Shown: piece by piece, positions 22,081 through 58,000 of the stretch
Position numbering within the stretch: position 1 is the first letter of the stretch
Layout: every line of letters starts with the position of its first letter
DNA from: Carya illinoinensis
Lineage: Eukaryota > Streptophyta > Magnoliopsida > Fagales > Juglandaceae
DNA: 64,000 nucleotides
Direction of reading: 5' to 3'
NCBI RefSeq assembly: GCF_018687715.1
Contig: NC_056764.1
Location: forward strand, 5,644,501 to 5,708,500
Position numbers and translations under genes: made by a program
The notes under the pieces: model-generated
What the model saw: only the letters and a program-made list of their open reading frames with translations
Database searches by the model: none
Told to the model about the DNA's origin: nothing

Positions 22081-22299
22081 GGATTGAGAGATCCAAATCC
22101 GAAGAAGAGACAGAGAATTTGGGCCCAAAAGATCGTCTTCTGTTGTGGGCACGCAGACTTTTTTACCTTCGGATACTCAAACGATGCTTGCTTGCTTGGT
22201 ACCGTATCGCGGGTGTTGAAGTCATGCCACCCCTGTTTTTGAAGGGTTTGGACTTTGTACTTTGAACTTTGAAGTACCTCCTCACCTGAGAGAGGACGC

Positions 22300-22940
22300 C
22301 CACGTTCATTTTATCTTGGGAACCACGTTCTATTTAATTTAGAATAGAAAATGGTGACATTTGGCAATTGCGTCCAGAAATTAATGGAAACTGAAGTTGA
22401 AATCTTAAAAAAGAAAAATTCTATTTTGAAAAATGATATTTGTAATTATGATTGTGTAAGTGTCGTGTAAATTTTTTAAAAATATTAAATTAATATAAAA
22501 TTTATATAAATAAATTAATTTTTTTAATTATAGATTTTATTTTTTTTAAAAAATAATTTTGTAGTATTTACACATTACTGTATATAATATTATTTTTTTA
22601 TTTTTAAGTTATTATGTATAATACATATAATAAAGTGTATAAATTTTATAAATTATACAATTAAAAGAAAATATTATTAAAGCTCCCTTAAATGTAACAT
22701 TTTTATTTTCCAAATTTTTAAAATTTAATAATTTTAATTGAAATTATCTTTATTTATAAAAGAGAAGGAAAGGACAAATTTTGTTCATCAGGCGTTATTG
22801 AAATCATAAAATTTAAGATGTGAATAAAAATAAATAAATATCAAATCCACGTAAACCCGCCCGGCCCGGATCGAGCCTGCCCCACCCGTGAGCCAAGCCG
22901 CCGAAGCTTAGGATCCGAGTAGTTTCCTCAGAAAACTGTC
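22300..22940. other. Divergent intergenic region between FRF copies 1 and 2
   Basis: AT-rich DNA separating two genes transcribed away from each other. It probably holds both promoters. A GC-rich patch at 22855-22910 lies just upstream of the first exon of the plus-strand gene. I see no specific regulatory site that I could defend. Confidence 0.4.
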
Positions 22941-23132
22941 CCATCTAATTCCTTCAGAAATTTTGGTTCTCTTCCGAACCCCCAAACCCAGGCCGCGCCA
23001 CAACACTCTGAATCTACTTTCCTTCAATTCGACCCTTTGTAGTAGTTTTAGTTGCGCTTACTCAGTCCATGAGAGCCGAAGCTTGTCTCTCTCAGGCTCT
23101 GGACCCTCGCATACAGATCTCCGTTTTCATAC

Positions 23133-25492
23133 AGTAAGTCCCTCTTTCTTTCTTCCCACTCCTTTTCTAAATTTTCACGCTTTTATCGTTCTTTCATTTC
23201 CAGATTATGTTGTCGTTCGTTTCGAATATCTATAGTTACAAGCCCTATTCTTAATTTTTCTGCTGATGAGAAATGTGGGAAAGTAACTATATGGCTTTAG
23301 TGAGTGGGAATTGTTCAATCTTAACCATAAAAAGTAATTTACTGATTGTCTCTATTTTTGATGAACCAAACAAAGTATATGGGGCCGTCTGTCTTGTTCT
23401 ACCATTAGTTTTTCGTTTGAAGTTTCCTTTGTGAGCCTATATTCCGATGATATTCTGCTGAAAAGACAAGTAAGGAAAGCTTACTATGATTTATTCGGTT
23501 CAATTTTTGCTATTTATATTTCTTTACCTATTGAATTAATTTGTTTCTCAGGAAAATGTTTTTTTTTTTTTAAGCGTAGGATGTGTACACTACATCCGTC
23601 CAAGAAATTACAAACGAAAATTAATTGAACAATGACATCCAAAAATAATCAAAACGAACAGTTCCCAAAGCGGGCAACCAGTCAAAGAAAGACTATGAGA
23701 GGATGGTTTTGAGCCCTTCGGATTCATCTAGGGTGTGCTTTGTTATTCACACCCGCACGGTGGGTTCTGGGTTTTGCTTGGGTTCTCTCTCTTCCGTTGT
23801 GCCCTGTCTACTGGAGTTTTTGTTGGCATCTTTTGCTATTGCGCAAGATTCATTTATTTTCTACCTTAAAAACAGGCCCTGCCTACAATGCAGTTTGATT
23901 AATACTTTTATTTATGTTCTGAAACTGTGTTATCAAGCTTGGCACGCATCTGAGTTTAATTAGTGTGCAATAATACTTTGCAATTGAGCTTGAAAAGATG
24001 ACCTTACTTCTCAGATTCACACCGTATTGCCTCATATTGCTACTTTGCATTGAAGTCATTCTAACAATTTTCATAATAACTTTGAATGAAAAATAAAATA
24101 AAACGATTTGCTGGGTGGATACTGCCCCCCTTTCCCCAGCATGCTGGGTGGATAATGCCATTAATCATAGAATAAAGAAAGTAGATTCTCTTCACTTCGG
24201 ATATCTCAACAACATATTTGAGGATATATTTATGGAAATCTTTGGCAGTGGATTTGGAGAAGGGAGTTGAAGCAGTAAACAACTCCCTTGTAGTGAACAC
24301 AGGCTCATTAGAAGGAGGTGCAGTTCTAGAACCATATGTGGGTATGGAATTCGATTCCGAAGATGATGCAAGGAAATTCTATGTTGAATATGCTAGACGG
24401 GTGGGATTTATTGTGCGAATAATGCAACGTCGCCGCTCCGGCATTGATGGCAGAACTCTTGCCCGTCGACTTGGGTGTAACAAACAAGGTTTCTCTCCTA
24501 ATCACAGAGGCACAATTGGACAGGAGAAAAAGCCAAGACCAAGTGCACGGGAAGGATGCAAGGCTACTATTTTGGTGAAGATGGAAAAGACTGGGAAATG
24601 GGTTGTTACAAGATTCGAAAAGGATCATAATCATCCCCTGGTTGTTACTGCCAATGGATTCAGCACAGCGGTGAGTTCCCACTTGAGTAACGAGTTTAAT
24701 TAACTTCAAACTCGTTCAATATACCTTAGCTCAAATTTTCAGATATTTTGCTGATTGAGATTTTCCTGTTTTCGCAAGGTTGTTAAAAGTCAAAGAGAAG
24801 CTTGTTTCATTCTATATCATTAACTTTGTCACAGAACCTGACATATTTTGTGCTTGCTAAATTTAGGTCAACATTTTTTGTTTACATGGCACCGGTTTAG
24901 ATCAAATATATGATTGTCATTTACTCTTGGTCCATTCTTAATCTTTACATGCCAATGCAGTACCTATTAATTGCATGAGTAACATACCAATAAAATAATA
25001 TTTTAAAAGAAAAGACCTTCATTATGGTACTTATCAAAGGGAACAAAGGTCAAAGAAAATGAGGGGAAGAAAGATCAAACGAATGATAGCCAACCAACAA
25101 TTGTCCTAGTGGATGCGAAGAATACTTTGAATCTAGGGACTGTAGTGTGATATGCTGGATGCATAACCATCAACTCATGTTGTATGACCAACAATTGTTT
25201 TGTTTTTTTTTTCAGTTACTTCCTATCTGGTGTGTGAATTAGTTCAGATTCAGTCAATAAATAAAATAGTACTTATTCATACTTGCAGGGTGATAAGGAT
25301 AAGAAAATTGAAGAGCTTACGGTGGAGTTGGAGCGACAGGAGCAGTTGTGTGCTGCATACCGAGAAAAATTACTTTGTTTTATGAATAATGTTGAAGAGC
25401 AAACAGAAGAACTATCCTCCAAAATCCAAGTTATAGTTGACAATGTGAGGAAAGTTGAATCAGAAGTGCAAAAACTTTCCAGCCATAGATAG
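23133..25492 (+). CDS. FRF-type single FAR1-domain protein (copy 2)
   Basis: Coding exons are 23133 (the A of the ATG), 24249-24670 and 25289-25492, giving 208 residues. The 5' exon ends TTCATACA|GTAAGT and exon 2 opens CTTTGGCAG|TGGATTTGG, so splicing creates ATG GAT TTG (MDLEKGVEAVNN). No useful ATG exists in exon 2 in this frame before the domain. FAR1 domain: EPYVGMEFDSEDDARKFY, with the Cys/His set in LGCNKQGF, REGCKATI and KDHNHPL. After the second intron (GCG|GTGAGT to TTGCAG|GGT) comes the coiled-coil tail GDKDKKIEELTVELERQEQL. Exons before 23133 (from about 22950) are untranslated. Probably a nuclear DNA-binding protein of light signalling. Transcribed away from copy 1. Confidence 0.87.
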
Positions 25493-26245
25493 TCTTGGCT
25501 TCTAGTTCTAACCCGAGTATATATTTGATGAGAGACCATGTATCATTATCCATATCGAATGCATGAATCATTTCGGCATTGTATAGGGCTTACTAAGATC
25601 ATTTTTGTTTTTCAAAGACCGGATCTTAACATTCAAAATTATGCTACGGGCTTTTTATCGTTTCCCTAGACTCTTAAGAAAATAAGAGTTTTATTTTTAG
25701 TTTAGGAGAAACGCAGCGTTGGAAATTTCAACATCTGTATGACAACTTTAGGAATAGAACGAGAAATGTACACCTTGAACGATTACAATATAAATGTTGT
25801 TTATCATCAATGTCTAGTGTTAATAAAATAATTTCATGTTACCATTTTTCATCATATATTTTGTACAATAAAAATGGTTATCCAAAGCCATTATGTCTCC
25901 TCTGAATCCTGACTCATGCAATTATAGTAAAATGAAAATGTTGGTACTTTCTCGTTTTAATAAAACCTATTTACCATCTATCTCAACCATCTATGTATAC
26001 AGGTACTGTATCTTAAATAACATTATTTCACAAGAACTACAAGATGAAGCCTGCTCCTGAAGCATTCCTGTACATTGACTTGACACGAGGCTTTTTCGAA
26101 TTTTAAAGACTGTTTATTGGGCAGACGAACAAATCAAGACTATTCGATGAAGCACATCAGACATTTGAATTAAGCACTTGTAGAGTTTATCCAGCCAAGC
26201 ATACATTCACGAAGAGATACAGCATACATACTCACTCCTTCCAGG
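25493..26245. other. 3' flanks between convergent FRF copies 2 and 3
   Basis: AT-rich sequence between two converging genes, probably both 3' UTRs and termination regions. No further coding signal. Confidence 0.5.
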
Positions 26246-27191
26246 TTATTCACTTTGTGAAAGCTTTTGGACTTCGGTCTCAAGTTCTCTTACGTCATTG
26301 ACTACAACCTCTACTTTTCTTGACAAAAGTTCTGTTTGCTCCTCGACATTTTCCAAAAATGAAAGTAGCAGCTCCCTATATAGTTCACATAGTCGATCTT
26401 GATGATGCAGCTCCATGGTGAGTTCTTGAATCCTCCTTTCTCTTGAATCCTGAGAATGTAAATTCATAAAAGAATCAACTTTAAATACTTGCAAGGGATG
26501 CACACATGGCTAAAAATATCTATAGAAGTTCAGAATCATGTTTCCTAGACCAGCGAGACACGTTATGTTCTCTCCTCCTTTCACCCAATAACCTCATTTT
26601 TCCTCTCTTTGAACCTATTTATCTTTCTGTATCTTAGTTTTCCCTAGTCATTTATCTTTCTACTGATGCTTAATAAGTAACGAAAACGTCTTGTTAAACC
26701 AAAAAGAAACTATAATCAGATACAGTGGCTAGCTAAAATTCTGTGATTGATTAAGATAAAACTCACCAGAGAACCCCGTGAAAGATGACCAGAAACAACC
26801 AAAGGATGACCATGATCCTTTACAATACTCGTAACAATCCATTTTCCAGATTTATCAACTTCCACTAACATCGTTGCCTTGCAACCTTCTCCCATGCTAG
26901 GCTGTGGTTTCTGAATCCGCCTCAATTCATCTCTAGCTTTTACATAAAATCCATGCTTATTACAAGAGAATCGACGGGAAATAATTCTTTTGTCAACCCC
27001 TGAACGACAGCACTCATCAACCCGCATAATGAACCCAATGCATCTCGCATAGTCATCATAAAACTCCTTGGCAGCCTCTTCTGACTCGAACTCCATCCCA
27101 ACATATGGTTCTACAGCTGGACCCTTTCCGTGTGCAACCAAGTCCCCCTCATCAGAACTTCCAACTGAGTCCACTCCCATGCCCAAGTTCA
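26246..27191 (-). CDS. FRF-type single FAR1-domain protein (copy 3)
   Basis: Exons are 27191-26767 and 26449-26246, with a CTG|GTGAGT donor and a TTCTCAG|GAT acceptor, phase 0. Exon 2 opens ATCTGACAG|TGAACTTGGGC, exactly the phase seen in copies 1 and 2, so one base (expected A, giving MNLGMGVDSVG) must come from an upstream exon that I could not place with confidence. With it the product is 209 residues. FAR1 domain: EPYVGMEFESEEAAKEFYDDY, with ligands in FSCNKHGF, GEGCKATM and KDHGHPL (HGH instead of the usual HNH). Coiled-coil tail: DSRERRIQELTMELHHQDRL. Its tail resembles copy 2 (VEEQTE, VQKLS) more than copy 1. It could also be the 3' part of the two-domain gene just upstream. Confidence 0.83.
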
Positions 27192-27889
27192 CTGTCAGAT
27201 GCCATCACGTTCTATCATTAAAGATTTACTTGTGCTTTAACACACAAAATGTATCAGATATTGAGCAAGAAAATGAATTAAATGACTAGTTTGAAGCACA
27301 AAGAATACACTCTTTCTTCAGTGTATTTCACAGAGGTCGGAAGAAGTAACAACCATGTTCAGAATCACATCTTTTCACCATGTTAGTCTTGAGTCCACAA
27401 GGGAAGGTTGAATTTAGTTGTCTATTTGTGATAATAAAAACTGCCACGCCACCTCATAAACAGATGCAAAAGAGAAATAAAACCACCCCAGAAACAGATT
27501 TACACTCCATGGGACCCAAATCACAAGGGTGTGATTTAGGAAAATTCATAACAAGGTGTAGCTGAAATACTTTCAGCATGCATATCTGAGATTACTCATA
27601 ACTGAAGACTGTCATTCAACAACTTAATCTGTAGATGCTGAAACCAACTATAGAATCAGAAGATATATATAATTGCTCCAAATTCTAATTCAAATCCAAC
27701 TCCTTTTTCTTCCAAAACCTGCACTTCATTTGGTTACCAGAGAAAAAAAATGAAAAAGTTCTGTGAACTTAAAACCTGGGGTTGACAAAATATTTGCATT
27801 ACAGTTCTGAAATCTGTGTACCATATTCAGAAATGATGTTTAATAATTGGTAATATATGCAGAAATGATGTTAACCAAATTTAATATCT
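27192..27889. other. Spacer between FRF copy 3 and the two-domain FAR1 gene
   Basis: Both flanking genes are on the minus strand. This 700-bp gap should hold the untranslated first exon or promoter of copy 3 unless the two are co-transcribed. I cannot fix a donor; GAAA|GTATTTC near 27570 is one weak possibility. Confidence 0.4.
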
Positions 27890-28945
27890 TTACAGACCAA
27901 TTCTGTGATTGAGGTCAATGTATCCAAGATTGGCCTTCCCATCAGCCTCTCTACACATCAACTCAGGTGCTGCCTTAGGCTTGATTCCAGAAGTATGTGT
28001 TAAATCAATTGTAAAATCTTGGACACCAGACATATTTTGATCCAATTGCATCATATGTGTTAAATCAATTGTAAAATCTTGGACACCAGACATATTTTGA
28101 TCCAATTGCATCATATTTTCTGGAGGGCGAAGAATATGATTATGTTCAAGGACAAAATCATACACTTTGTACTTTCTGGTTTCTCGATCTAAATTAACAG
28201 ACAACCGTACAGGACAGTTGGTCCTTGTTTCCTCTCGATGGGTCTGATAGTTCCGTTTATCTGTTTGGCGAACACCCTCTTTAGAACATACAAATCCTCT
28301 TGACGTTATTTCTCCATCTATCTTACTTTTATTGGCAAAATGCTTCCTAACATTGAAACCCATTTGCTTTCCATATTTTTCCCAATGTTTCCATGCCTCT
28401 TCCAATTTATTAAACTCCATACCCATTTTCGGTATCCAATCAATTCTAGTATCCATGTTTTGAGAAGTATCACCCAACATAGACTTATGTGTTTCCTTAG
28501 GCCTGATTCTAGAAGCATATGCTAAATTTCTCGGAAAAGCTTGGACACTTGACAGTTTTTGTTCCGATTGCATCCTATAAGTAGTTTCTGGAAGATGAAG
28601 AATATGGTTATGTTCACAGACAAAATCATACACTCCATACTTTCCGGTCTCACGATCTAAATTAATGCACAACCGTACAGGACAATTTGTCCTTGTTTCC
28701 TCCCGATGCGTCCGAACATTCCGTTTGTCTATTTGACGGACACCCTCTTTGGAGCATACAAATCCTCTGGACGTTATTTCTCCGTCTAACTTACTTTTAT
28801 TTGCAAAATGCTTCCTAACACCAAAACCCATTTGCTTTCCATAGTTTACCCAATGCTTCCATGCCTCTTCTAATGTATTAAATTCCATACCAATCTCAGG
28901 TGTCCAATTAATTCCAGTATCCATGTTATGGAAAGTCTTTTCCAT
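27890..28945 (-). CDS. FRS5-like protein with two FAR1 domains, no transposase domain
   Basis: A single open frame of 351 residues starts at the ATG at 28945 (MEKTFHNMDTGINWTPEIG). Two FAR1 domains follow in tandem. The first is about residues 14-115 (GMEFNTLEEAWKHWVNYGKQ, FVCSKEGVRQ, RTNCPVRL, CEHNHIL). The second is about 170-275 with the same motifs (GMEFNKLEEAWKHWEKYGKQ, FVCSKEGVRQ, RTNCPVRL, LEHNHIL). Then come two identical 20-residue units and EADGKANLGYIDLNH, which in full-length FRS5-type proteins leads into the MULE transposase domain. Here TAA follows within a few codons, so the transposase and SWIM parts are missing. The stop overlaps a possible donor (CT|GTAAAG, or G|GTCTGT just before it), so the gene may continue by splicing. 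5' UTR exons appear to lie at 29697-29749 and upstream. Confidence 0.8.
   Translation of the reverse strand: MEKTFHNMDTGINWTPEIGMEFNTLEEAWKHWVNYGKQMGFGVRKHFANKSKLDGEITSRGFVCSKEGVRQIDKRNVRTHREETRTNCPVRLCINLDRETGKYGVYDFVCEHNHILHLPETTYRMQSEQKLSSVQAFPRNLAYASRIRPKETHKSMLGDTSQNMDTRIDWIPKMGMEFNKLEEAWKHWEKYGKQMGFNVRKHFANKSKIDGEITSRGFVCSKEGVRQTDKRNYQTHREETRTNCPVRLSVNLDRETRKYKVYDFVLEHNHILRPPENMMQLDQNMSGVQDFTIDLTHMMQLDQNMSGVQDFTIDLTHTSGIKPKAAPELMCREADGKANLGYIDLNHRIGL
27995..28114. repeat. Exact 60-bp tandem duplication in the two-domain FAR1 gene
   Basis: Two identical adjacent 60-bp units (27995-28054 and 28055-28114) encode a duplicated MMQLDQNMSGVQDFTIDLTH on the minus strand. The frame is preserved, and the lack of divergence means the event is recent or homogenised. 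Confidence 0.95.
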
Positions 28946-31900
28946 CACATCCCTTGAACTTTACATTAAGAACCCAATTCAGAAAGCTCGGAATATCCAA
29001 CCTACACCGAAGAATTTGAAAGAAATAAGCCATAAAAATTGCCACTATCATTAAAGGAACAATAAAAGGCAAAATTGACATATATAGTTTTTTTTTTTGG
29101 ATAAGTACATATATAGGTATTTGATTGAATAACTCCACACAAGTAGACAAATGAAGACAATATGTTGTTTACTTATCAAAAAATGAAGACAATATGTTGT
29201 TGGATGACCGCTTCAATGGTCCAAGTTGCTCACATGTAAGGTGCAAATTTGATTATATTTTTTAAGGAAAAAGCAGAAGGGAAAAAAACTCTTAAGACTT
29301 AAAAAGAGGATCAAATTGCATTTTTTGATAATTACGAACCAACACACATTGAATTACCAACTCTAAGTAAAATAGAGGTAGAAAGATCATAAAGTTATCT
29401 TTTCACAACACCACGAATCCTCTGTCACGAGGACAAATATGTAAAAAGAAAAGCTTAATGACATAATAAGAAAAAAAAAAATTAAAACTTTGGAACATCC
29501 ATCGGGAAAATTCTTTAGAAAGATATCTCGGCATTATATTGCCAATCATCACCTATAAGGTGTGGTGGAACATTGAGTTTGTCTTATTTTTCCCCCAAAG
29601 CAAATTAGCAAACTACAAGTATCAGTTAGCAGTGAAACAAACATGTGAAAGCAAAACCTATAAGCCACTTGAAATCTAAAAAAATCACATACCGAGAGAA
29701 CATTTTGAAGCAACTCCCGAAACCATCGGCATACTTCCCTGTCCTCTGCGAATATCAAATTCTACCACCATAAAAGCCACGCAAAAAAAGTGTTCGACCA
29801 TTCTGGGAAGTTCTGTTTGTATGAGTATAAAGAGCAATAGAGGGGGTTCAAGGTCGTAGAAACTTCAAATTCTCCATTGTTAAAAAGGAGAATGCTAACC
29901 AGAAATCCATGTGGGTGGGCTCGGTGCGGATGAATTGAAACATAATAACTGCGATTGATTGAATGAGAAGAGGAAGGGCGTCACTTTGTCCAAGCAGCAG
30001 AAACGAAAGAGAAACCGGCGACGGCAAGCAGAGGGCAGCCGGCGACGGTCGTGAGCTAAATCTTTTTGCTTAGGGCTGAGTGATTATGTTTCCGGTTTCT
30101 GCGGATAAATCGATCGCTGAGCGGCAAAATTTTTGTAGTCCGACAGCACGAAAGTACTACAATGGGGTTGCTTACGAGGCAATATCTCCACCGTCCATTT
30201 CGAGTTGAAGGGTCAGGGTTAAAACAATCTTGCACCATAAAATTCCTCGATAGTTCCAGGAGATGTCGACGTTGATTTTCAATGATCTTGTCCCTTTTAA
30301 ATTTCCCTTTTTAGAATTTGTCGTAAAAAATGTTTAATTTTTATTTCTGAATTTCCCTTTTTAGAATTTCCCTTATCATTCATAAAGACTTATTTTTTTT
30401 GTTAATTAAATTTATTAAAATTATAAAATTTATTTTATGTCTCTATCTTTTTTTCAATTTTCATTAGTGACTTGGTGAATGGGACCTCGGTGATTTTCAT
30501 TTTTTGAGAATATTTTTACAATATGATCATAATTATAGTTTTTCTACTATTTTACTGAAATTTATCTTACTAAGAACTTGATATTATTGTAGAATGGATG
30601 TTGACTAATGATATTTTCTTATGAGTAATGTTACATATAGTTATAAAATGTATAAATATCATACAGTTATTTAAAAAATAAATAAAATTTATGATTAAAA
30701 AATTAACATAAATTTCATATTTATTTATTTATTTAAAATGATTATGTCGCGTTTCTGCAATTACGATTTTAATAATTATATCTCTTCTCCCCTTTCATAA
30801 TTCAACCCAACTTCTTTAAAGAGAGAGAGAGAGAGACTAAGAGAAGAAGAGGACAATTAATTAAATTTAAGAAAATTATAATATTTATTTCATGTATCTA
30901 CATTTATTTTCAATCTTAAATAATAATTTGAAAAAAATATTAATAATAATCTTCAATGCCTGTAACAAGTCTTTTTTTATATAGTATAGAAAGATTAATT
31001 AATAGCTTCACGAAATTCCATGTACTAGACTTAAGCAAAGACAATACTAAAATTGTATTTGGATGTTGAGTCGAGTTGAGATGAAAGTTAAAAGTTGAAT
31101 AGAATATTATTAAAATATTATTATTATTCTAATATTTGAAAAATTTAGATTGATTATTATATTTTATGTTGGACTTTAAGAAATTGTAATAATTAGATGA
31201 AATAAGTTGAGATAAATTGAGAAGAGTTGAGTAACCAAACTGGCTAAAAGATAAATGATAATTTGCAGATTCATGGCTAGCACACACTCTGTAATTTAAT
31301 TTAGAGTTTTGTTATATATAAGTAAAATCACGTATTAATCTGTGATCAAATATTGATTTATTTATATTTAAAATTTAAATTAATACTGTTTTCAATAAAA
31401 TTTATTTTTTGACCAATACCATTAGATTTATGCATATATTAATGCATAATTATGTTTATAATTAGATTTTTTCTTTAATTCATGCTTCATTTCTAAGATC
31501 GAGTAGATATTTTCTTTTAAAAATTAAAATAAAAAACAAAAAGTTAATTACTATTCCATAATCTTGAGTTTAGAGTTTAGATTACATGGCCGCCCACTGC
31601 ACGGGCACAAAGCAAGCTAAACCCAGCTTCAGTTTTTATTTTTTTCAGCTTCTTGTCATCACCGTCAGAAGCAAATAATTGTTTAAGAACACCGATTATA
31701 ACCCAATTTTCATTGTCTTTTTATATATTTCGACCCTCCGTTTGTTTGCCTGGAAAACCTGGGAAAACATAAAAGTTTCAATATTTGTTTTGTTCTGGGT
31801 TAGAAATTTCCTGACTCTTTTTTTAAAGAACAGGATTATAACAACGGCTTCTGATAGGCTCTGATTTATTGTTGTTTACCTTCGCTTTACTCAGCTAGAA

Positions 31901-32979
31901 TGATTCGAACGACATGGTTCGACAAAATCAGGTACGGACCCAATGCTCTTCAGTGTACATTTTTATTGGATTTTGGGAATTATGACGGAGATTTGAGATT
32001 TCTACTGTTCTCAGAATGTGGGCTCAAACTTTATCTAGAAAAATTGGTTCTTTGGCATTCCATAAGTTGTTCTTGAATCCCTCAGATTTTCAATTTTGGA
32101 ATTCGAATGTAATTAGAAGCTTCTCAAAGACCTGAGCCCTGAGTCTGAAATTATGCCAAAATGTTGGCAGCTAACAGTACGAGCCAGGCGTGTTTAAATA
32201 GGATCTTATGTCCATGTCATATCATCAATTTCCGTTCTCGAAAAAAGTTTCTGTATCTCAAGTTTAGATTTTGGTGGTGAAATCGATTTAATTGAATTTT
32301 AAAGATCGCAAGGACCGTGAGTTTGTTACAAAATAAGAACGCTATAGCCTTTAATATGTTATATAATTGTTCATAAGCATTATGCATCGATATGCTCGTG
32401 TTTAAAACATTAGAAGACTCGCTGAACACTCGTTTTCTAGAGCTGATATGCTGTGCAGATAGGAAATAGTTTTCGCTAGCAGACTGAGCCCAAGCATTCA
32501 TGTTGCAGGATGTAAAGCGAACCCAAGATTGATCTCTGACAGAGTATTTTGAAGTAAAATTTGAGCATGATCCTTATGTTTTAAGCACTTAGCATGGGAC
32601 AATTTAGGTCAAACAGTGGTCCGCAGTCTTTTAAAAAAAAAAAAAAAATGCATTCTTATCTGCCATAGGGGAGATGTTTTAACACTGGTTCACCATAGTT
32701 TGTCTATTCTCAAATGCAGGGTGCTGCTTCTTTTACGTTTATGCTGCCATTCATCATGTGCTTGTACCATCTTTGCCTTTTAGTTTTAGGCTACTTTGCC
32801 CTTTCCAAAAAAGAAAAAAAAAAAAAAACAAAAAACAAAAAACAAAAAACAAAAAACAAGGAACAAAACAATACAAAACAAAGTTTTAACCTATTTTTCA
32901 TGATCTTTGTGAAGTATCGCCTCCTGCTTGCAGCTTCATGATGGATTAGCAGCAAGTCTAAACCTGTTCTAGGAGGATA
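28946..32979. other. 5' exons and promoter of the two-domain FAR1 gene, spacer, 5' region of FAR1 copy 5
   Basis: On the minus strand, 29749-29697 is bounded by ATTCGCAG and CTCTCG|GTATGT and looks like a 5' exon of the FAR1 gene. Sequence around 29900-30240 may hold the first exon and promoter. From 30250 to 31650 the DNA is AT-rich and carries a MITE at 31050. On the plus strand, around 31880-31932, a short exon ending AAATCAG|GTACGG and acceptors at about 32719 (AAATGCAG) and 32971 (GTTCTAG) suggest spliced 5' UTR exons of the gene starting at 32980. An imperfect CAAAAAA repeat lies at 32810-32880. Confidence 0.5.
31050..31245. repeat. MITE-like element, family A
   Basis: About 195 bp from TTGTATTTGGATGTTGAG to GAGTAACCAAACTGG. 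The ends are imperfect inverted repeats. Internal AATAGAATATTATTAAAATA, TAATATTTGAAAAATTTAG and GAAATTGTAATAATTAGATG match the other family A copies. Confidence 0.65.
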
Positions 32980-34496
32980 ATGGAAAACCGCTGTGGCCAA
33001 GCATTTGATTCAGATGAGAGCGAAAAGTGTCTGCAAATTGAAAGTTATGTCGAGCATGAATTTGGCGATGATGACCTTTCCAAAAATGCTGATCTATGTA
33101 TGGGTAAAGTTGATAAAATTATAGAACAGCCGCATGAAAGCTCATCCTTAATAGACAATGTCTTAGAACCATATGTTGGCATGGAGTTCGATTCCAGAGA
33201 TGATGCTCGAGAATTTTATATAGCTTATGGCAGGCGTACTGGGTTTACTGTACGCATTCATCATAATCGGAGGTCACGAATAAATAACATGGTTATTGGT
33301 CAAGATTTTGTTTGTTCAAAAGAAGGTTTTCGTGAAAAGAAGTATGTGTACAGGAAAGATAGAGTTCTTCCTCCACCGCCTATCACCAGAGAAGGCTGTG
33401 CCGCGATGCTGAGGCTAGCTTTAAGGGATGGAGAAAAGTGGGTCGTCACAAAATTTGTAAAGGAACACAATCACACATTATTATCTCCAAGTAAAGTTCC
33501 GTGGCGAGGATCTGGAAAAAATATGATAAGTGAGGTATGTCTTTTTTGAAATTCTTTATGATAATGACAGGATTGTAGGAATAAATATGGATTTAATAGA
33601 TTTTGGAAAGCCTTGTGTTGCTGGGTGGCAACCTGCTTGGCTCAAGTCAGCTTACTTTATCCTGTAAAGAGCAGTGCAATTCAGCGGCAAATTTGCCACA
33701 AGACCTTGTGCACTGTTAGATCTTGGATTTGAAGTTAAAGCTGCTGCCCTGTGGAGCTCTTCCAAATATATCAATTGAAAAAAAAAAAAGAGCCTCTGTA
33801 AAATTGATTGAATGTAGAGATTTGATGGCATCCCAAAAACATATCTGAAGCCTTAGTAATATAGGTCCCACTTGCATTTGTATGTATAAGCAAAGAAAAA
33901 AATACTTTTTCCAATGCCAAAGGTTAATTCGTCTGACTGCAACCCTGCAAGTGGTAATATTCTTTCTGAGAAGGTACTCATTAAGGAGGAATAGAGAACT
34001 AAATTATGGCACTCAGAAATATATTCATTTTGCTGTAGAAGTTATAGCTGAAAGTTTCAAGTCCATTGGCAAAGTGATATTTTTCACCTACCTGTTATGA
34101 CAATGTGAATGTAGAATTGTATGAGCGAGATACCAAATTTCAGCTATTATCCATACGAAGAGGTAGTGCAAATATTTGTTATTTATAATAGAGACATGAA
34201 AAAATCTAAATGCTTTCCTTTATGGTGAAGTTGTCTCTATAATCTTTTCATTTCTTTTATGTTGTGGTTGTTACTTGCAGGATGAGAAGGATCAAAGAAT
34301 TCGAGAGCTGACACTTGAACTTAGCAATGAGAGGCAACGATGTAAACGTTTGTGTGCGGCTTATCAGGAACAATTACATATGGTGTTGAAATATATTGAG
34401 GAGCACACCGACCACATGGAAAGAAGAGTGCAAGATATAGTTCAGAACGTGAGGGAAATTGAGAATGAGCAGCAGGGGGAATCTACATTTTTATAG
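32980..34496 (+). CDS. FRF3-like FAR1-domain protein with a longer N terminus
   Basis: Exons 32980-33534 and 34281-34496 (GAG|GTATGT donor, TTGCAG|GATGAG acceptor, phase 0) give 256 residues. About 60 acidic residues (MENRCGQAFDSDESEK...) precede the FAR1 domain EPYVGMEFDSRDDAREFYIAYGRR. Zinc ligands are in FVCSKEGF, REGCAAML and KEHNHTL. The tail DEKDQRIRELTLELSNERQR is a coiled coil close to that of copy 1. There is no transposase domain. The start is a complete ATG in the exon, unlike copies 1-3. An Arabidopsis FRF gene (At3g07500) sits next to CML3 and C1-FDX, and homologues of both lie downstream here, so this is the best candidate for the ancestral locus. Role by family: nuclear DNA binding in FHY3/FAR1 light signalling. 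Confidence 0.88.
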
Positions 34497-42460: not shown

Positions 42461-44891
42461 CTGCTCTCCTTCCTCAGGTCAAGTGGCACAAAGCTCACCA
42501 TGCTATACTCATCGACCTAACACAACAAAAATTATTTTTTAGCTATCCAAAACCGAACCAATTGTCATTGTGCTCAAACATTGGGATAGAAGATAGAAAG
42601 TAATTCTGTTTCTTGAGAAATGAAATGTCTTTATACAACCTGTGAAGGCCAATAATCACTACAAATTGTCTAACCACAAACACAAGGCTAGGACAAACAG
42701 GCATCCTGAATCCTTCCCAGTTAAGTGTACAATCTAGCATGCCAGCTTATCTTGTGTCTATTTGGTTCCTCCAGTGAGGGAAAGATATTGATAGATATCA
42801 TACAACCATGATGAAATCAATCCATCTTCAATAACCATACAGAAGAACCCAGGGGAAATTTACCGCTCATGTACGAGCTACTCTTCCAGGAAACTCAATT
42901 GTGCGTGTCTAGGGTTTGGGTGTTGAAAAATGTCGAGGTATGTTGTGAATAGTAGTGAAAAAGTATGTGAAAAGTAATAATATAATATTGAATAGTAGTG
43001 AAAAGTAGGTGAAAAGTAATAATAAAGTAATGAATAGTAGTGGAGTATGTTGAGAAATGTTGAGGTACGTTCAGTACCCAAACACTAAATAATAAAGATG
43101 CTTTAAATGGAAATTTTTAATACAATTTAGGAAAAGTGGCCGAGGACAGAAATAAAGAAGACAGATACTTGTTATTAAAAAAATCACTTGAATGTATCCA
43201 AATAATCTTTCAGGGCACTGATAACAAAAGCATGCCAAAAAGAAATGTGGATTCATATGAATAATGTAGACTCAAACTCCCGGCATGTAATTTTGTGCAG
43301 AACTATTATCCACAGGTTTACAAGGAAATATATCTTAAAGAAACTCAATTACTCACCAGTTCAATCAAAGCTTTATTCAGCTTGGCAAACTGAGGAGCCA
43401 TGCGTTGATTCAGCTCTGATAACAAAAATCGAGGCTCTGGATTCAGAAAGCTGAGACCAGTAAAAGTACAAAACATGTTAGTTCAAATAAATTCAAATGG
43501 GGACCCATGATGTAAAGCAGCAAATGGTAAAATAGCCCACTCTTCAATGTCCTTTTTGTTGGAAACGAGGTCCATTTTGGAGAGGATATTAATATGGGGC
43601 AGCTCAAGTTGGATCATTGCAGAAAGTGATGCCATGCACCCACTAATGAACTTGGTCACATCCGTCATAAACTAGAAAAACGAAACACTAAAATGATTAG
43701 TTTTAATAAAATGTAAGTACTGATCAATATTGAAATGAAAAGAGTTTTCCAAGGCAAGAAAAGATAAATGTCAAAAAGCAAAAAAAGTAATGGATTTCGT
43801 GAGACCTGTGAATCAAGCAAGTATACAGCACAAACATTGAAATTTTTACGTTTCAAATGGTCCACAAAATTCCGCAGCACTGGCACATGAGAAAACAGTT
43901 CTATTTGGCCTGCATAAATATTTAAAGGTTAGGATTACTCAGCACATGGTTTTCAACCAATGAAACAGGAATGCCAAAGTTAGAAGCTTCAACATATAGA
44001 CTCTGTTCAAATCATATGCTATGAGTGGTAATCTGAAATAGGGAGGATATACTTTCTGAACTCATGAAGTTCTTTCAGAATACTTCAGATTAAATGCTCA
44101 TGTTGCTCTTCATAATCATCTTCCGCAACAATCAAATTCAAAACACACAATACATACAAATAAAATATAGGGACAAGCACACAACTCAACAAGTGGGGAT
44201 ACCTGGACAGTCAAAAATCAAGTAGTCATCATCTGAGTAATTGTCTAATTCTTCCGTCAACCAATCATCCAGATTATCTTCAAGGTGTCTAAACATGGAC
44301 TTAAGGCATTCATTTTGCAACAGGATAATCATTCAAGGTATCCAGTAGTAGAAACATTCAAGGTCTTTCAGCTCTTTAACACAGACGACTATCAAACATA
44401 AATGCAATCATAAAAAACATACAGGAAAGGCGATTAAAAAGTTTCTGAAATTGAAAAAGGATACTCCATGCAGTATATAAGGCCTCCATTGGGACCCAGT
44501 CCAAGTTCATCCATAACATCATCCAAGTTGATGAGTTCCCTTATATCTGGAAAAAAAAAAAACACACGGCTTTCCCAAATTAATAGAATCAGATAAAACT
44601 AACAAACGATCGAGCAAGCATTCAAGGGGCCCCACTCACCCATTGCCACGGGATAATCAAAGTTCTCTGCAGCAGGATCCAAGTTTACAATATGTATAGA
44701 TCGCCCCACGGTCTCACAGTGTTGGTATAAACTAGAACAATAAGTTGACTGACATAAAAAAGAAACAAATGAGAATATAGTTATACCCAGCATTTTCACC
44801 GCAAGAACCGACAGCATATGCATAATGTTCAGTGAAAGATTTTTACCTTGCCACTGCCAGCAGGGCCAATAACGAGTTGTGCAAACCCCAT
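42059..44891 (-). CDS. GPN3: GPN-loop GTPase 3
   Basis: Nine exons: 44891-44847, 44748-44640, 44546-44465, 44288-44203, 43909-43806, 43671-43541, 43450-43357, 42516-42461 and 42155-42059. All have GT-AG borders and sum to 804 nt, 267 residues, the usual length. Motifs in order: P-loop GPAGSGKST (residues 9-17), [13 protein letters not shown], the diagnostic GPN loop in [25 protein letters not shown] (G3), [11 protein letters not shown] (G4), and an acidic end [12 protein letters not shown] proteins form dimers that help RNA polymerase II assemble and enter the nucleus. Intron 7 carries a family B MITE. A (GA)n run abuts the donor of exon 8. The upstream flank contains another (GA)n at 45257-45296, probably in the 5' UTR or promoter. 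Confidence 0.95.
42424..42458. repeat. (GA)n microsatellite beside the GPN3 exon 8 donor
   Basis: On the gene's strand the donor reads AGCAG|GTACTCTCTCTC and runs straight into CT repeats. Confidence 0.9.
42905..43086. repeat. MITE-like element, family B, in GPN3 intron 7
   Basis: Starts GGGTTTGGGTGTTGAAAAATG and ends CGTTCAGTACCCAAACAC, giving inverted ends GTTTGGGT/ACCCAAAC. The interior repeats GAATAGTAGTGAAAAGTA and AAAGTAATAATAAAGTAATG. Same family as 35250-35400. Confidence 0.75.
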
Positions 44892-45251
44892 GATGATATA
44901 TTTGGCGGGTGTTCTGTGTATTCGGTTTTGGGTTTTGAATAATTACCAGTAAAGATTTGGGCGAAGGAAGTTGAAGAAGCGTAAAGAAGTGAGAACTGCA
45001 ACAGTGAGATAAGCAGTGCACCAAACACCAGCCGCGAACAACAATTTCAGCACATCGCAATATGCCATATAACGAATAAATAAACCTAAACCCAATCCGA
45101 AAATGTAAATAATAATTTGAAAGGAAAAAAAAAAGACAAACTTAAAGAGGAAAGAATATATTATCGACTGAGCTAACCGAGTTCGCAGACTTCAAAAATC
45201 GATGAGTTCTTTACGCTCGAGGTGAACCAAGAAATCCTCCTTCGAGGGTTT

Positions 45252-45299
<48 letters not shown>

Positions 45300-47116
45300 T
45301 TGGATGGGGATATGGGAGGACTTTGAAAACCTGGATGCAGAAAGGGGTAAAGGGTCTAACTTTATTCGTTTCCCTCTCGCTTGGGTCCATTGCATAGGTT
45401 GGAAACATGGATCGTTACCCATTACCCATTCCTTTGCTAGGATTTGACCCAAATGTTCTGTTTACAAACGCTTTAAAAAGGAAAGAAAAATATTCTAACC
45501 CAAAGAATATGATAAATTTTAATAATTTTTAACAATGTAAAATAATGTTTTACATTAGAATAATCTTTAATAATTATTATTATGATTTTAATAAATAATA
45601 ATAATTATAAAATAACACGACATTTTGTAATTTGTATTAGGATAACAATACGATTCCATTCGAATTACAGAGTAACAAAGAACTTTTAATGGAATAAGTT
45701 TCAGGTTAATGAAAATCTTCTTGTCAATTAAAATAACTCAAATCGCCAAATTTTTTTTTTTTTTTTAAATTTTTGTCCCAATAAGAAGATTATTCCGTAG
45801 GACGAATAAATACTTTTTGTTTTGAGAGATGGACGGATAAGTTCTTGATTTAATGCAGCAAATTAATGTTCAACTGATTTTAACAAAACTTAACTTAAGA
45901 GACCTTATAATATACATAAATACTAAATCTACTGAATCTGTATCCCGAATGTATGTCCCCATTTTTTTTTCTTTTTCTTTTTGTACTTCATGATTAAGAA
46001 AACATTTTTTAATAATATTGTGAATTTTTTTATTTCTTAAAAATATTTAAGAATATAAAAAAAATCAATGAAAAAAAAAATCAATAAAAAAAAACAAAAA
46101 TTCTAAAGCTCCCAAATTCGAGAGTTAAAAAATCTACCAAGTCCTTTTAATTTATTATTATTATTATTATTTATTTAGTGATTAAATAAATTTTTCTACG
46201 TGATGTTGTGAATTTTTTTTTTTTTTAAATATTTAAGAATATAAAAAAATGAATGAAAAAAAAAATTGCTGTATTTAGGAATTCGGGTTACATTCTTTGG
46301 TAGGTGCTGCTCAAAAATAAATAATTGCTCGTCTTTAGACCAAGCTCGTGGCTCTATAATACATCTCCGTCTTTTTCCTTTAAATTTGCAGGACAATAAA
46401 ATATAACTTTTTCTTAACAAGACATTCAGTCACATGTCTATTCATGCTTTTAACGTTGTTAAAATAATTGAGTTGTAAATAATAATATTTTATAAATTTA
46501 ATTTAGATGAATTTTTCATTTAAGATAAATTAAACTTTTTAGGTAAAAATATATAAAATTGATATGAGATTAAATTTTTTATAAAAAAATAAAAAAATAT
46601 TAATTCTCATTAATATTTTTTTTTTGAAAGGAAATTCTCATTAATAATTAAGTTAAGATAAGTTAAATTGATCCATCAACCAAACACAACCTTAAGTGAA
46701 CACGCCAAGGATGTTCAGTACATGTTTCATACTCTAATCTCAACGAAGCATTGAGTTCTCAAATGAATAGTGATGATCTTTTAAGAAGGCTGTCAAATTG
46801 TCTATTCCTTCACACTGGAATTACCCAAGGTATTATTTAGATAGACAAATCTTTCCAAGCAACGTCCATTTCTAGTAACATATGTGGCTGTCCAGATGTA
46901 ATTGGGAGAAAATTCTCCATAGTAAAGGGATTTCATTCCATAGAGCCCTAGATCAATTTTAGCCCTGTTTTAATGAATGAAGTCAATTCAATGAATCAAG
47001 ATACATAATGTTCGGATCCAAATGAAATGGAAGCATTTTTCGAAGAAAAAAAAAATGCAGAACTGGTTTTCTTGGCATCCTCGAACAAGACATCCCAGCT
47101 TTCCTGTTACCATTCA
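44892..47116. other. Intergenic: GPN3 upstream region and AT-rich spacer
   Basis: Contains a (GA)n at 45257-45296 near the GPN3 5' end, then AT-rich DNA with many A/T runs (45500-46660). A minus-strand hairpin (AGCTGG...CCAGTT with inner TCTTG...CAAGA, about 47061-47100) followed by a T-run lies at the 3' side of the snoRNA-like locus. No protein gene recognised. Confidence 0.5.
45257..45296. repeat. (GA)n microsatellite
   Basis: About 20 GA units upstream of GPN3, likely within its 5' UTR or promoter. Confidence 0.95.
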
Positions 47117-47284
47117 TATATTTATCCCAACCATGTGATGTGCCTATTCGAACAACAGACTGAACAATAGACAACCATTTTAAGTCGAGCGAAGTTGGGA
47201 GATTCATTAATATCGCAAACGAAGAAATTGCCTCAAAACATTCGTCAAGAATCTCGACGGTTTCGGGACAGAGTGCGTTTGCTG
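47117..47284 (-). ncRNA. Second putative H/ACA snoRNA in the same transcript
   Basis: The 5' hairpin is convincing. An outer stem GCAAACG (47282-47276) pairs with CGTTTGC (47221-47215), and an inner stem CGAAAC/GTTTTG plus CGTC/GACG leaves two single-stranded pocket strands. It is followed directly by ATATTA (47213-47208), a perfect ANANNA H box. The 3' hairpin is weaker: TCCCAAC (47200-47194) can pair with GTTGGGA (47131-47125), but the sequence after it has no exact ACA. An ACA lies only inside this arm (GGCACATCA). No rRNA target was assigned. Confidence 0.5.
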
Positions 47285-47350
47285 ATTGATTTTCTAATCT
47301 CAAAAGTACTAAGATCTGAAACATATTCCTAAAAAGCAAAAGAGACAAAC

Positions 47351-47504
47351 AGATGTGCCAGCATTAAAAAGGGCCTGAGAAATCAAACGAGAGATTAGGA
47401 TGAAGTTCAGGCGAGTGATACTGGCGAATTCAATCTCGCAAGGTTGTATAAGAACAATTTGACTGGAACCGTAGATGGTACCAGTCAAGAAGCTGACCTT
47501 GCTT
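47351..47504 (-). ncRNA. Putative H/ACA-box snoRNA
   Basis: About 154 nt that fold on paper as hairpin-hinge-hairpin-tail. Hairpin 1: outer stem GCAAGGT/ACCTTGC (47502-47496 with 47444-47438), inner stem TTGACTGGTACC/GGTTCCAGTCAA (11 of 12 pairs) with a 6-nt loop, and unpaired strands between them as in a pseudouridylation pocket. Hinge: GAGATTGAATTC, close to but not an exact ANANNA. Hairpin 2: GCCAGTAT/ATGCTGGC (8 pairs, one G-U), inner GCCTGA/TCAGGC. The 3' end is ACA plus three bases (ACATCT, 47356-47351). Such RNAs guide pseudouridylation in rRNA or snRNA. I could not assign a target. A promoter of the plant snoRNA type lies upstream. Confidence 0.7.
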
Positions 47505-47660
47505 TTCCTTTTTCCTTTCTGTCACTAACAAAAACTTGCAGAAGAATTATAAAAAAAAAAAAAAGAAGAAGATGGATGCACCAAAATACAGAGTGAAAAA
47601 CATAGAGGGCAGCAGAGGCGGATTGGGAGCAAGACAGATATATCTCTAATATCTGCGAGG

Positions 47661-47751
47661 TATTTATAGGAGGAGAAAATGAAGGATTAGGGTTTTTGCA
47701 GAGGAAGTGGTATCTTTGTCGTTTCAGCCCAAAGATTGGGAGGGCTGGGCT
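47661..47751 (-). promoter_or_regulatory. Telo-box, site II and TATA promoter of the snoRNA-like locus
   Basis: On the minus strand in order: site II elements (TGGGCT, 47731-47726, with another in opposite orientation at 47746-47751), telo-box AAACCCTAA (47695-47687) and TATAAATA (47668-47661). This combination is typical of plant snoRNA clusters and ribosomal protein genes. The TATA box lies about 155 bp upstream of the first predicted snoRNA. Confidence 0.7.
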
Positions 47752-47759
47752 AGGACATG

Positions 47760-48309
47760 CAGGTTCTTTAAAATCCCATGCCATTGAAAAATAAATACTC
47801 AAAGCCCAGTAGCATCTACCCAGGTTTATTTTCTTCTATAAAGCTTAATTTCTCTATAATGAAGCTTTTGTCCAACATAAGCTCAAACACCCCATCCTCC
47901 TGTCCCACCAAAGGAAGGAACAGAAATAACCCTAATAGATGGCATGAACTATGATGCAGTGGCAATCCCCAAACAAGGAAACTATATGCCCGTCAATCCA
48001 TCTTTACAAAATCCAAATCTCTATTGGTTTGAAAAGAACCTCACTAAAGCAGATTAATCGTTCTTAGATCCTGTTTGCATGCATCATTTTGCTTGTTCGT
48101 CGTTTTCTTTTGGGCCTGTGGGGTATTTTGTGGCAACTGGACTTCATACTTTTTGTCTGCTAAACTTCCTCTCAAGGACTGACCTCAAGTAGTTCAAACA
48201 TTTTAGTATCAATAACGAAAGCCAAAACCAAAATTTCCAATTTTTTGTGACAAATAAAATGAGGTACTAAGATTTTCCATGCTTTCTTGGGTCCAAGTCT
48301 TTATACATA
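47760..48309. other. Intergenic, nothing recognised
   Basis: Plain AT-rich sequence between the snoRNA-like promoter and the first LTR. Confidence 0.5.
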
Positions 48310-55043: not shown

Positions 55044-58000
55044 TGTAACGCCCCCAAATTCCGTTTGGGATCGGACAGACATTTGAAGCGTCGAGACATG
55101 CAACACAAGGTTACCTACCCCCGTTCATAACATATAAGATGCAATAATCCTAACATGCATCTAACATTATGCAATATTCGCAGCGGATACTTTTTTTCTT
55201 TAGCAATACTATGCACCAAACTGAAAATATCTCAATACTTAAAACATACTTCATACATAAAGATCCATTGAATAACTAAGATCACAGCACTATTCCAAAA
55301 TAGTTATGATCCAAAAGTACTGGAGATGCAACTCCATCGTACAAGTAGTAATTTAACTACTATATTAACATTAACGACGCACCGTCGTTCAGTCGACTGT
55401 GTCTAGTTGGTCAGCTCCTGATCCTCCTTCAGGTCCTGTAACAAGATCTACCATTCGGGGGGAATGGTAGTTGGGACTACCACAGTGAGATTTGATTACA
55501 AATCTCAGCAAGTTAACAAAAAACTTCCATACAGACTAATGATGCATGTATGACAGTAAAAGCATAAATGCATAATCAAATTTATAAGTAATTAAAGAAT
55601 AACTTAGCGTACAATATAGCATAATTGACATAACTTAAATTGAATCATGAACTGAACTTGACTTGACATGAACTTGCTCTGAAACTTGACTTAGCATGAA
55701 CTTGCTCTGAAACTTGAATTAACATGAAAAATACATACTCCACAGTTGTTGTGGCCCCATGTATTCTACGTGTAAATACATACTCCACAGTTGTTGTGGC
55801 CCCATGTATTCTACGTGTAAATACATACTCCACAGTTGTTGTGGCCCCATGTATTCTACACAAACTTGACTTAACATTAAAAATACATACTCCACAGTTG
55901 TTGTGGCCCCATGTATTCTATACATCACTATGCAGTTAAATACATACTCCACAGTTGTTGTGGACCCATGTATTCTACATAAACTGAATATACTCAAGAT
56001 GAAACGTGACTGGAATATGAAAGGACTGAAGCCCTGACGTAACATAATGTGACTTGAACATAATTTGAAATACATAACCAACTTAAGATAGTAACATTTC
56101 GTAACATGGCATAACATATAACAAACAACATATTTAGCATGACATATTTGTAATGTATAGTAATACATGACAGAATATATTGTGTAACAGATAAAAATTG
56201 ATGACAGAATAAATTCTGTATAATAGAAAATTACATGATAACTTGGCATGGCATGACATATATGATAACATACATACATACACTGTAATTCTTTTACTTA
56301 GCACACATACACAGTAGACTGCTAGTAAGTTAAAAGCTAACTTACCTCGATCTCCGCATTTCTTATAAAACTTCAAGTGCGATCACGAGGAACTGTAATT
56401 AGTGATTCTAAAAGTTAGAACTAAATCACTAATAATTTGAAATATGGAAAATACTAACTTAAAGAGTAAAATTTTCATTTTACTCTCTATATGTGGGAAA
56501 ATGACCGTTTTACCCATAACTTAAGGATTTTGCATACTAACTCCAAAAATTTCCAAAATTTACATTCCTCATGTAAATCTTGTCCTAAACTTAAATATCA
56601 ACTCAGAAAAATTTAAAACAAAACACAACTATGAAGAACACACTATGGTCGAAACATCCATAGGCCATTTCCCTTTATTTTTGTTGCAATTCCTTCCAAC
56701 TTCAAAACTCATGCTTAAACCAAAATTTTGCAACAAACATCTTCCAATCCTAAGTTCAAAACCATACTTACAACATCCATTTAGAAAAAGCTAATAATCA
56801 ACACCAAACTTTTTTGTAAAAAGATCCAAGCACTTGAATCACAAGTGTTGACCTTAAATCAAAACATCTCCAAGAATTTCAAAAAATCAAATCTTACTTC
56901 TAACATATTCATAATATCATCCTAACATCAACCATGCTTTAAATCATCAAACTAAAGTCACCAAAATCACAAAATAACATTTGGAGTTTTTGGTTTTACA
57001 CTTAGTCCAAAAACATAAACTTTTCCCTCAACTAGTTTTGATAAATCTCTTGATCTATGACTTATAAATATATGATCTTCAAACCAAACCATCACATGGT
57101 ATAAAAAGATGTCCTAAAACATATATAAGCTTCTAATTCAATATCATATGGTTAGAAATTAACCAAAATATAAATTTAGCCAAGAATATCCACACTTTGA
57201 CTTATTTGAATATCTCTTTGCATAAAATTTCATATCTTTGAAACTAATATCAAATATCTTCAAAATAATAATATAACATGTATATAAGATGTTTAGGATC
57301 CTCCAATAAAATTATCAAAGTCATTAGAATAGGTTTAGACCACCAAAGAGTTAAACTTTCTCAAAACAGAAACTGTTTTTCCTCTTCCAGTTTCTAAGTT
57401 TCTAAATCTAAGAACATCTTTCATCAAAACCTTTAATCATGCAAAAATCCTCAACCAATAGTCACATATACATGTTAACAATACTCCATAAAAATTTCGG
57501 ACCAATATCTATCCATTAGCTTGGTCAAAAACTCCAAACTATAACATATTCTCCAGTTTATCTCCCAGAATGACCTTTCTATAGTTTACACAATATTTGA
57601 CTGACCAAATGATCTTCAAATGGGGCAAATAAGATATCCATGTAAACTAGACTCAAAAAGGAACAACTTATATGAAGGAGACGTTATGATAAAACACTTA
57701 CAACAGCTTCGAAATGGGCATGCAAAAGATCTCCTAAAATCTGTTCGAGAGAGAGTGTTTGATAATCTTTTATTAGAAGGAGTTATTGAAGATAAGTTCA
57801 TGGGTGCTGGCTGGACACATTTATGGACGAGATAAGGGAGGTGATAAGGCTGGAGTTGAGAGTTAAGTGTGGTTTTCTCCTACCCAAAATATCTATAAAA
57901 GATTATCTCATAATATTCTATCTAATAATATCTACAAAAATCAACTTAAGATATTTTTATCTAATAATATCTATAAAAATCAACTCAAAATATTTTTACC

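What the first reader, a model, noticed from the sequence alone, without database searches (positions are those of the whole stretch)
47117..47760. Apparent polycistronic H/ACA snoRNA locus behind a telo-box/site II/TATA promoter
Two adjacent minus-strand stretches fold on paper as H/ACA RNAs. The first has both hairpins with compensating stems, unpaired pocket strands and ACA exactly three bases from the end. The second has a clean 5' hairpin followed by an exact H box (ATATTA). Upstream are site II, telo-box and TATAAATA in the order known for plant snoRNA genes. A protein-style open frame over this stretch (47348-46983) has no domain and is better explained this way. I could not match a known snoRNA, so these may be undescribed guides.
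Basis: partly seen in the sequence, partly recalled or inferred. Interest (0 to 1): 0.75.

Follow-up and report, generated by a model that had tools for sequence, protein, structure and literature searches.

The report
Two-snoRNA gene in a pecan-like genome
This stretch of a pecan-like genome, annotated in one pecan assembly as a small protein gene, is very probably a gene for two small guide RNAs, one of which matches a known chemically modified site of the plant ribosome almost perfectly; it is a new member of a well known kind.

Summary
Minus strand 47502-47351 (RNA1) and 47283-47120 (RNA2) fold as box H/ACA RNAs behind the window's only site II + telo-box + TATA arrangement. RNA2 is not an unknown guide: its 5' pocket (GCACUC / AUUUCUUCG) makes 15 unbroken pairs around one uridine of plant 18S rRNA, GAAGAAAU-Psi-A-GAGUGC (Arabidopsis Psi762, human Psi815, mapped), 15 nt before an exact H box. 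The same stretch is the region's best, sub-threshold Rfam match (RF00545, snopsi18S-841/snoR66). RNA2 ends in AUA, not ACA. RNA1 has two good hairpins and ACA three bases from its end, but its hinge misses the H-box consensus by one base and no convincing target was found. Five partial RNA1 copies lie on other contigs; two have target-site duplications of 16-21 bp, so an RNA1 transcript was once reverse-transcribed. The overlapping ORF, a pecan hypothetical protein, has no domain and no other relative found. Not shown: present transcription, RNA lengths, covariation.

The parts
47661..47808 (-). promoter: site II TGGGCT 47808-47803, AGCCCA 47751-47746, TGGGCT 47731-47726; telo-box AAACCCTAA 47695-47687; TATAAATA 47668-47661
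   Evidence: only such arrangement in the 64 kb at the distances tested
47351..47502 (-). RNA1, H/ACA-like RNA of about 152 nt: 5' hairpin, hinge GAGAUUGAA, 3' hairpin with pocket CACUC / CCUUUUUA, ACAUCU end; right pocket starts 16 nt before ACA
   Evidence: five partial copies elsewhere in the genome
47120..47283 (-). RNA2, H/ACA-like RNA of about 164 nt: 5' guide hairpin, H box, 3' stem UCCCAACU/GGUUGGGA, AUA+AAU end
   Evidence: copies on contigs C14 (47283-47116) and C4 (47275-47203 and a shorter piece)
47271..47276 (-). RNA2 left guide strand GCACUC, pairs with 18S GAGUGC; reads GCACUU in the C14 copy and is changed in the C4 copy
47220..47228 (-). RNA2 right guide strand AUUUCUUCG, pairs with 18S (U)GAAGAAAU, starts 15 nt before the H box; invariant in the three aligned copies
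   Evidence: the second C4 half-copy has one change in it
47208..47213 (-). H box AUAUUA
   Evidence: AUAUUA in the C14 copy, AUAUUG in the aligned C4 copy
47120..47125 (-). proposed 3' box AUA + 3 nt (variant of ACA)
   Evidence: GGUUGGGAUA identical in the three aligned copies, following bases vary
46983..47348 (-). ORF over RNA2, annotated from its inner ATG (47324) in pecan as I3760_13G056700, hypothetical protein; judged not a real protein

Best explanation
A pol II gene (telo-box/site II/TATA promoter, transcription along the minus strand) makes a precursor that carries two box H/ACA snoRNAs, cut and trimmed to about 152 and 164 nt. Each would bind dyskerin and the other H/ACA core proteins. 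The 5' pocket of RNA2 opens around 18S rRNA GAAGAAAU-U-A-GAGUGC and positions that uridine (Arabidopsis Psi762, human Psi815) for isomerisation to pseudouridine. RNA1 is a second H/ACA RNA whose target is not settled. Shown by computation: folds, boxes, promoter motifs, the 15-bp guide match and its position, the diverged copies. Inferred: transcription today, one common precursor, protein binding, modification.
For: Guide: 6 + 9 contiguous pairs (14 Watson-Crick, 1 GU), best of the 1304 U positions of recalled 18S, 25S, 5.8S and parts of U1, U2, U4, U6; next best 20.8 against 34.7; 0 of 1000 shuffled guides reach it, though the best shuffle scores 34.3. With mismatches allowed the next site scores 26.1, and 0 of 300 shuffles reach the score (best 34.4). 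At least 6+8 pairs in 18S+25S are reached by 31 of 20000 shuffled guides and in 1 of 2000 shuffled rRNA sets. The uridine is a mapped Psi conserved to human (PMC8351944, section 10 read). Pocket-to-H-box distance is 15 nt. Rfam's top hit for the region is RF00545 on the same strand with the same pocket. Hairpin z-scores -3.5 to -4.9. Promoter arrangement unique in the window and of the kind described for plant snoRNA genes (PMC4660826, passages read). The C14 copy (76%) matches 47283-47116, that is from the predicted 5' end to just past the predicted 3' end; the C4 copy (84%) matches 47275-47203. The right guide strand and GGUUGGGAUA are invariant in the three aligned copies.
Against: RF00545 scores 23.7 bits against a gathering cut-off of 50, E 0.22 for 2 kb, and no Rfam family reaches its cut-off in the window. 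cmscan of six of the seven copy loci, the C14 and C4 RNA2 copies included, gave 0 matches at E up to 2. RNA1's H box is off by one base and RNA2 ends in AUA; the strict scan misses both RNAs. The 5' hairpins of the C14 copy and the two C4 half-copies do not fold better than mononucleotide shuffles (z +0.6, -0.4, -0.8), and the left guide strand is changed in C4, so these copies look decayed and give no covariation test. No RNA1 pocket tested against shuffles finds a target better than they do.
Confidence: 0.85

Rival explanations
1. A small protein gene: the annotated pecan hypothetical protein of 113 aa is real and the RNA folds are accidental.
For: An open frame of 121 codons and a pecan annotation with 99% identity over 93% of the query.
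Against: No Pfam domain; 1 match at E up to 10 in a search of 5.8 billion proteins, the pecan entry itself (that search sees only relatives sharing short exact words); the frame runs over the right guide strand, H box and 3' stem, which are what the copies conserve. The annotation may rest on a non-coding transcript (inference).
Confidence: 0.04
2. One real snoRNA only: RNA2 is a guide, while RNA1 is a spacer or a decayed H/ACA RNA.
For: RNA1's hinge lacks an exact H box, its 5' hairpin has a 14-nt right side, and its pockets find no target beyond chance where shuffles were run.
Against: Both hairpins z -4.4 and -4.9, ACA three bases from the end, 16-nt pocket-to-ACA spacing. Five partial copies elsewhere, two of them retrocopies, show that an RNA1-containing transcript existed.
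Confidence: 0.15
3. The whole locus is a decayed snoRNA gene; a functional copy lies elsewhere in the genome.
For: Several copies exist; RNA2's 3' part is atypical.
Against: None of the seven other places found holds both RNAs; the RNA1 copies are partial and the RNA2 copies' 5' hairpins fold poorly, while this locus has a complete promoter. The promoter was not sought at the copies. Only 3 other RNA2 matches, on 2 contigs, at E up to 1; that search reports lower bounds.
Confidence: 0.06

Closest known systems
Rfam RF00545 snopsi18S-841/snoR66 (H/ACA)
   Same: 5' hairpin: lower stem GCAA.., left pocket GCACUC(UGU), right pocket CAAUUU.UU; same strand and position.
   Different: Score 23.7, below the cut-off of 50; 3' half not alike; the right guide strand differs from the family consensus and fits the plant 18S sequence (as recalled) instead.
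Human and yeast H/ACA guides for the same 18S position (SNORA28 / snR80, names recalled, not from a call)
   Same: Proposed target uridine, human Psi815 (equivalence from PMC8351944).
   Different: No sequence comparison was made.
Plant polycistronic TeloSII snoRNA genes (PMC4660826, passages read)
   Same: Telo-box, site II, TATA, then two clustered snoRNAs.
   Different: Precursor not shown here; no comparison with that paper's Arabidopsis RNAs was made beyond the Rfam search, where TeloSII_ncR30 scored 14.5 against a cut-off of 86.
snoRNA retrocopies known from mammals (PMC8178906, listing and start of abstract seen)
   Same: Copies of RNA1 with target-site duplication and A-rich end.
   Different: Plant; 5'-truncated; few copies.

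Membership tests
box H/ACA snoRNA (RNA2) | hairpin with bipartite pocket 14-16 nt before the box | tested here: met
   15 nt to H box, 6+9 pairs with recalled 18S
box H/ACA snoRNA (RNA2) | H box ANANNA after the 5' hairpin | tested here: met
   AUAUUA 47213-47208
box H/ACA snoRNA (RNA2) | ACA three bases from the 3' end after a second hairpin | tested here: inconclusive
   stem followed by AUA+3 nt; AUA kept in the three aligned copies; AUA as an accepted variant is recalled
box H/ACA snoRNA (RNA1) | two hairpins, second followed by ACA+3 nt | tested here: met
box H/ACA snoRNA (RNA1) | H box ANANNA | tested here: not met
   AGAUUG(A), one base off
box H/ACA snoRNA (RNA1) | guide match to rRNA or snRNA | tested here: inconclusive
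   best matches no better than shuffled guides where shuffles were run
box H/ACA snoRNA | association with dyskerin/NHP2/NOP10/GAR1 | not testable with these tools
   needs experiment
Rfam RF00545 | score at or above gathering cut-off 50 | tested here: not met
   23.7 bits; so works like it, not filed as a member
TeloSII polycistronic snoRNA gene | telo-box, site II and TATA upstream | tested here: met
TeloSII polycistronic snoRNA gene | one precursor for both RNAs | not testable with these tools
   no RNA data
LINE-type retrocopy (RNA1 copies) | target-site duplication and A-rich 3' end | tested here: met
   2 of 5 copies: L010 21 bp exact, L015 16 bp with 1 mismatch; no clear one for L009, L011, L012

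The most novel reading that the evidence does not exclude
The two RNAs of one precursor may divide the adjacent pair Psi761/Psi762 of 18S rRNA: both have the left pocket strand CACUC, RNA2 fits Psi762, and RNA1's 3' pocket could place the neighbouring uridine or serve as a backup; alternatively RNA1 guides one of the mapped plant Psi sites for which no snoRNA is known. The pairing of RNA1 found at this place (5+5 pairs, one skipped base, score 17.7) ranks third for that pocket and is not better than chance.
Probability: 0.1. Interest if true: 0.55.

Novelty: new member of a known kind. Interest (0 to 1): 0.33.

Why it matters
It turns an anonymous annotated protein of a crop tree into a guide-RNA gene with a named, testable modification site, and gives a two-RNA example of the plant snoRNA promoter grammar. 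A 2021 review counts 13 of 31 mapped Psi sites in 25S domains IV and V without a known snoRNA (PMC8351944, section 9 part 1 read), so target-less H/ACA RNAs such as RNA1 are candidates. RNA1's retrocopies also suggest that plant H/ACA precursors can be reverse-transcribed. None of this changes a general view.

Tried and rejected
Rejected or empty: (1) Other Rfam hits in the region (mir-1282, MIR6438, MIR5298, Phe_leader, TeloSII_ncR30, SNORA31 and more): all below cut-off, several over the T tract, judged chance. (2) A strict H/ACA scan, 0 full matches, does not recognise this locus. (3) RNA1 targets: the best candidates of the registers tried score about 18-25; where the control was run, 241, 527 and 547 of 1000 and 184 and 185 of 300 shuffled guides did as well. 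One register of the RNA1 5' hairpin that meets the 16-nt rule points to 25S GGAUAAG-U-GGGAGCUUC (6+5 pairs, score 24.7), and another scores 24.8 on 18S; leads only, no shuffle control was run for these. (4) RNA2 3' pocket: best 23.7 on 25S over three guessed registers, no control run, no claim. (5) Searches for plant-like rRNA in viral and genome contigs: 0 stretches for one 18S pattern, 0 for the 5.8S and second 18S pattern, 1 and 6 stretches for the 25S pattern; four of those seven were scanned and are LSU 3' fragments of unidentified eukaryotes; L004 was used as a partial check of the typed 25S (834 of 1050 aligned bases equal). (6) Literature: 9 answered searches; psi18S-841 / snopsi18S-841 / RF00545 gave 1 paper, on another subject by its title; walnut/pecan + snoRNA gave none on snoRNA genes among the titles of the 10 rows listed of 1521; snoRNA retroposition gave nothing on plant snoRNA among the 12 and 4 rows listed. 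(7) Folding RNA2's 3' part gives several near-equal folds, so its upper part is open.

Full report
What is there. The window lies in a 674-Mb genome held in 17 contigs, at C13:5644501-5708500. The ORF over the locus is 99% identical over 93% of the query to a pecan (Carya illinoinensis) hypothetical protein, so the plant is pecan or a close relative. On the minus strand, between the promoter motifs at 47808-47661 and position 47120, lie two foldable RNAs: RNA1 47502-47351 and RNA2 47283-47120.

More than chance? RNA1's two hairpins have z-scores of -4.4 and -4.9 and RNA2's 5' hairpin -3.5, with 0 of 200 dinucleotide shuffles as good in each case. A 3' hairpin with ACA alone is common: 19 distinct ACA positions on both strands of the window pass a simple scan, this one among them. 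The strict two-hairpin scan finds none, because RNA1's hinge (AGAUUG) misses ANANNA by one base and RNA2 ends in AUA. The promoter is unusual: telo-box, site II within 200 bp and TATA within 100 bp downstream occur together only here in 64 kb. This trio is described for plant snoRNA genes in PMC4660826 (passages read).

Guide of RNA2. The 5' hairpin has the lower stem GCAAACG/CGUUUGC, the left pocket CACUC and the right pocket AUUUCUU, and the right pocket begins 15 nt before the exact H box AUAUUA. Scanned against recalled plant 18S, 25S and 5.8S rRNA and parts of U1, U2, U4 and U6 (1304 uridines), one site stands out: 18S GAAGAAAU-[U A]-GAGUGC with 6 + 9 contiguous pairs, score 34.7 against 20.8 for the next; if mismatches are allowed the next site reaches 26.1. 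0 of 1000 shuffled guides reach the score, but the best of them comes to 34.3; with a looser rule of at least 6+8 pairs, 31 of 20000 shuffled guides and 1 of 2000 shuffled rRNA sets pass. The uridine is the second of the pair that PMC8351944 gives as Arabidopsis Psi761 and Psi762, mapped and conserved with human Psi814 and Psi815 (section read). In my typed 18S the pair is at 762/763, one off, so the identification rests on sequence context and not on an exact number. No pecan rRNA could be fetched: the genome search did not answer those requests.

Rfam. No family reaches its cut-off in the window. The best match in the region is RF00545, snopsi18S-841/snoR66, 23.7 bits at 47283-47180 minus, E 0.22 for 2 kb and 0.056 for 511 bases. 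Its consensus pocket GCACUCUGU...CAAUUUGUU is close to the one found here. RNA2 works like that family; it fails the score test of membership.

Copies in the genome. A DNA search with the locus found itself and seven other places. Five carry parts of RNA1: C4 98%, C8 90%, C7 88%, C11 87%, C3 91%. C8 (L010) is bounded by an exact 21-bp direct repeat with an A-rich end before it, and C3 (L015) by a 16-bp repeat with one mismatch; no clear repeat was found for the C4, C7 and C11 copies. So at least two are retrocopies, 5'-truncated, and the copied RNA ran past RNA1's predicted 3' end (alignments). That is indirect evidence of past transcription. Two places carry RNA2: C14 over 47283-47116 (76%) and C4 over 47275-47203 (84%), with a second half-copy beside it and a 3' part beyond. 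In the alignment of C13, C14 and one C4 copy, AAUUUCUUCGUUUG and GGUUGGGAUA are invariant and the H box reads AUAUUA, AUAUUA and AUAUUG; the left guide strand is GCACUU in C14 and lost in C4. The second C4 half-copy has one change in the right guide strand. In the fold of the C14 copy two C-G pairs of the 3' stem read as U-G (my reading). But the 5' hairpins of these copies fold no better than mononucleotide shuffles and cmscan finds nothing at E up to 2 in six of the seven copy loci. They are probably decayed, and true covariation remains untested.

The protein reading. No Pfam domain and no relative found except the pecan entry in a word-based search of 5.8 billion proteins. The window and the pecan protein differ at one residue in 113. 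The frame overlies what the RNA copies conserve. A misannotated non-coding transcript is the likely explanation.

RNA1. Its 3' pocket (CACUC / CCUUUUUA) stands 16 nt before ACA, as it should, but no searched rRNA or snRNA site scores better than shuffled guides. Its 5' hairpin has an overlong right side; two registers of it give scores of 24.7 and 24.8 without a control. It may guide a site in RNA not searched, or one of the plant Psi sites for which no guide is known (PMC8351944), or have lost its guide function.

Verdict. A two-RNA plant H/ACA snoRNA gene, one guide matched to a known 18S site, the other open: a new member of a known kind.

Noticed in passing
about 44890-42060, minus strand: GPN-loop GTPase-like gene (ATP_bind_1 domain in ORF 44599-45060); the snoRNA locus is about 2.2 kb upstream of its apparent ATG and looks independent of it (by eye).
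   Followed up: partly
L016 4024-4178, minus strand (C14:11676023-11676177): The whole-length RNA2 copy lies, in sense, between exon-like frames that resemble a NOT2/VIP2 gene (recognised by eye, not tested), that is in an intron.
   Followed up: partly
L014 (C4:14018854-14019008), minus strand: Two RNA2 5' half-copies in tandem followed by one 3' part with a longer extra hairpin.
   Followed up: partly
L010 and L015: 5'-truncated RNA1 retrocopies with target-site duplications of 21 and 16 bp: snoRNA retroposition in a plant.
   Followed up: partly
20997-33549, both strands: Several ORFs share the motif EPYVGMEF..., resembling FAR1-like proteins (by eye only).
   Followed up: no
55719-56279, minus strand: ORF whose translation repeats the unit EYMGPQQLWSMYL (by eye; no repeat search run).
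   Followed up: no
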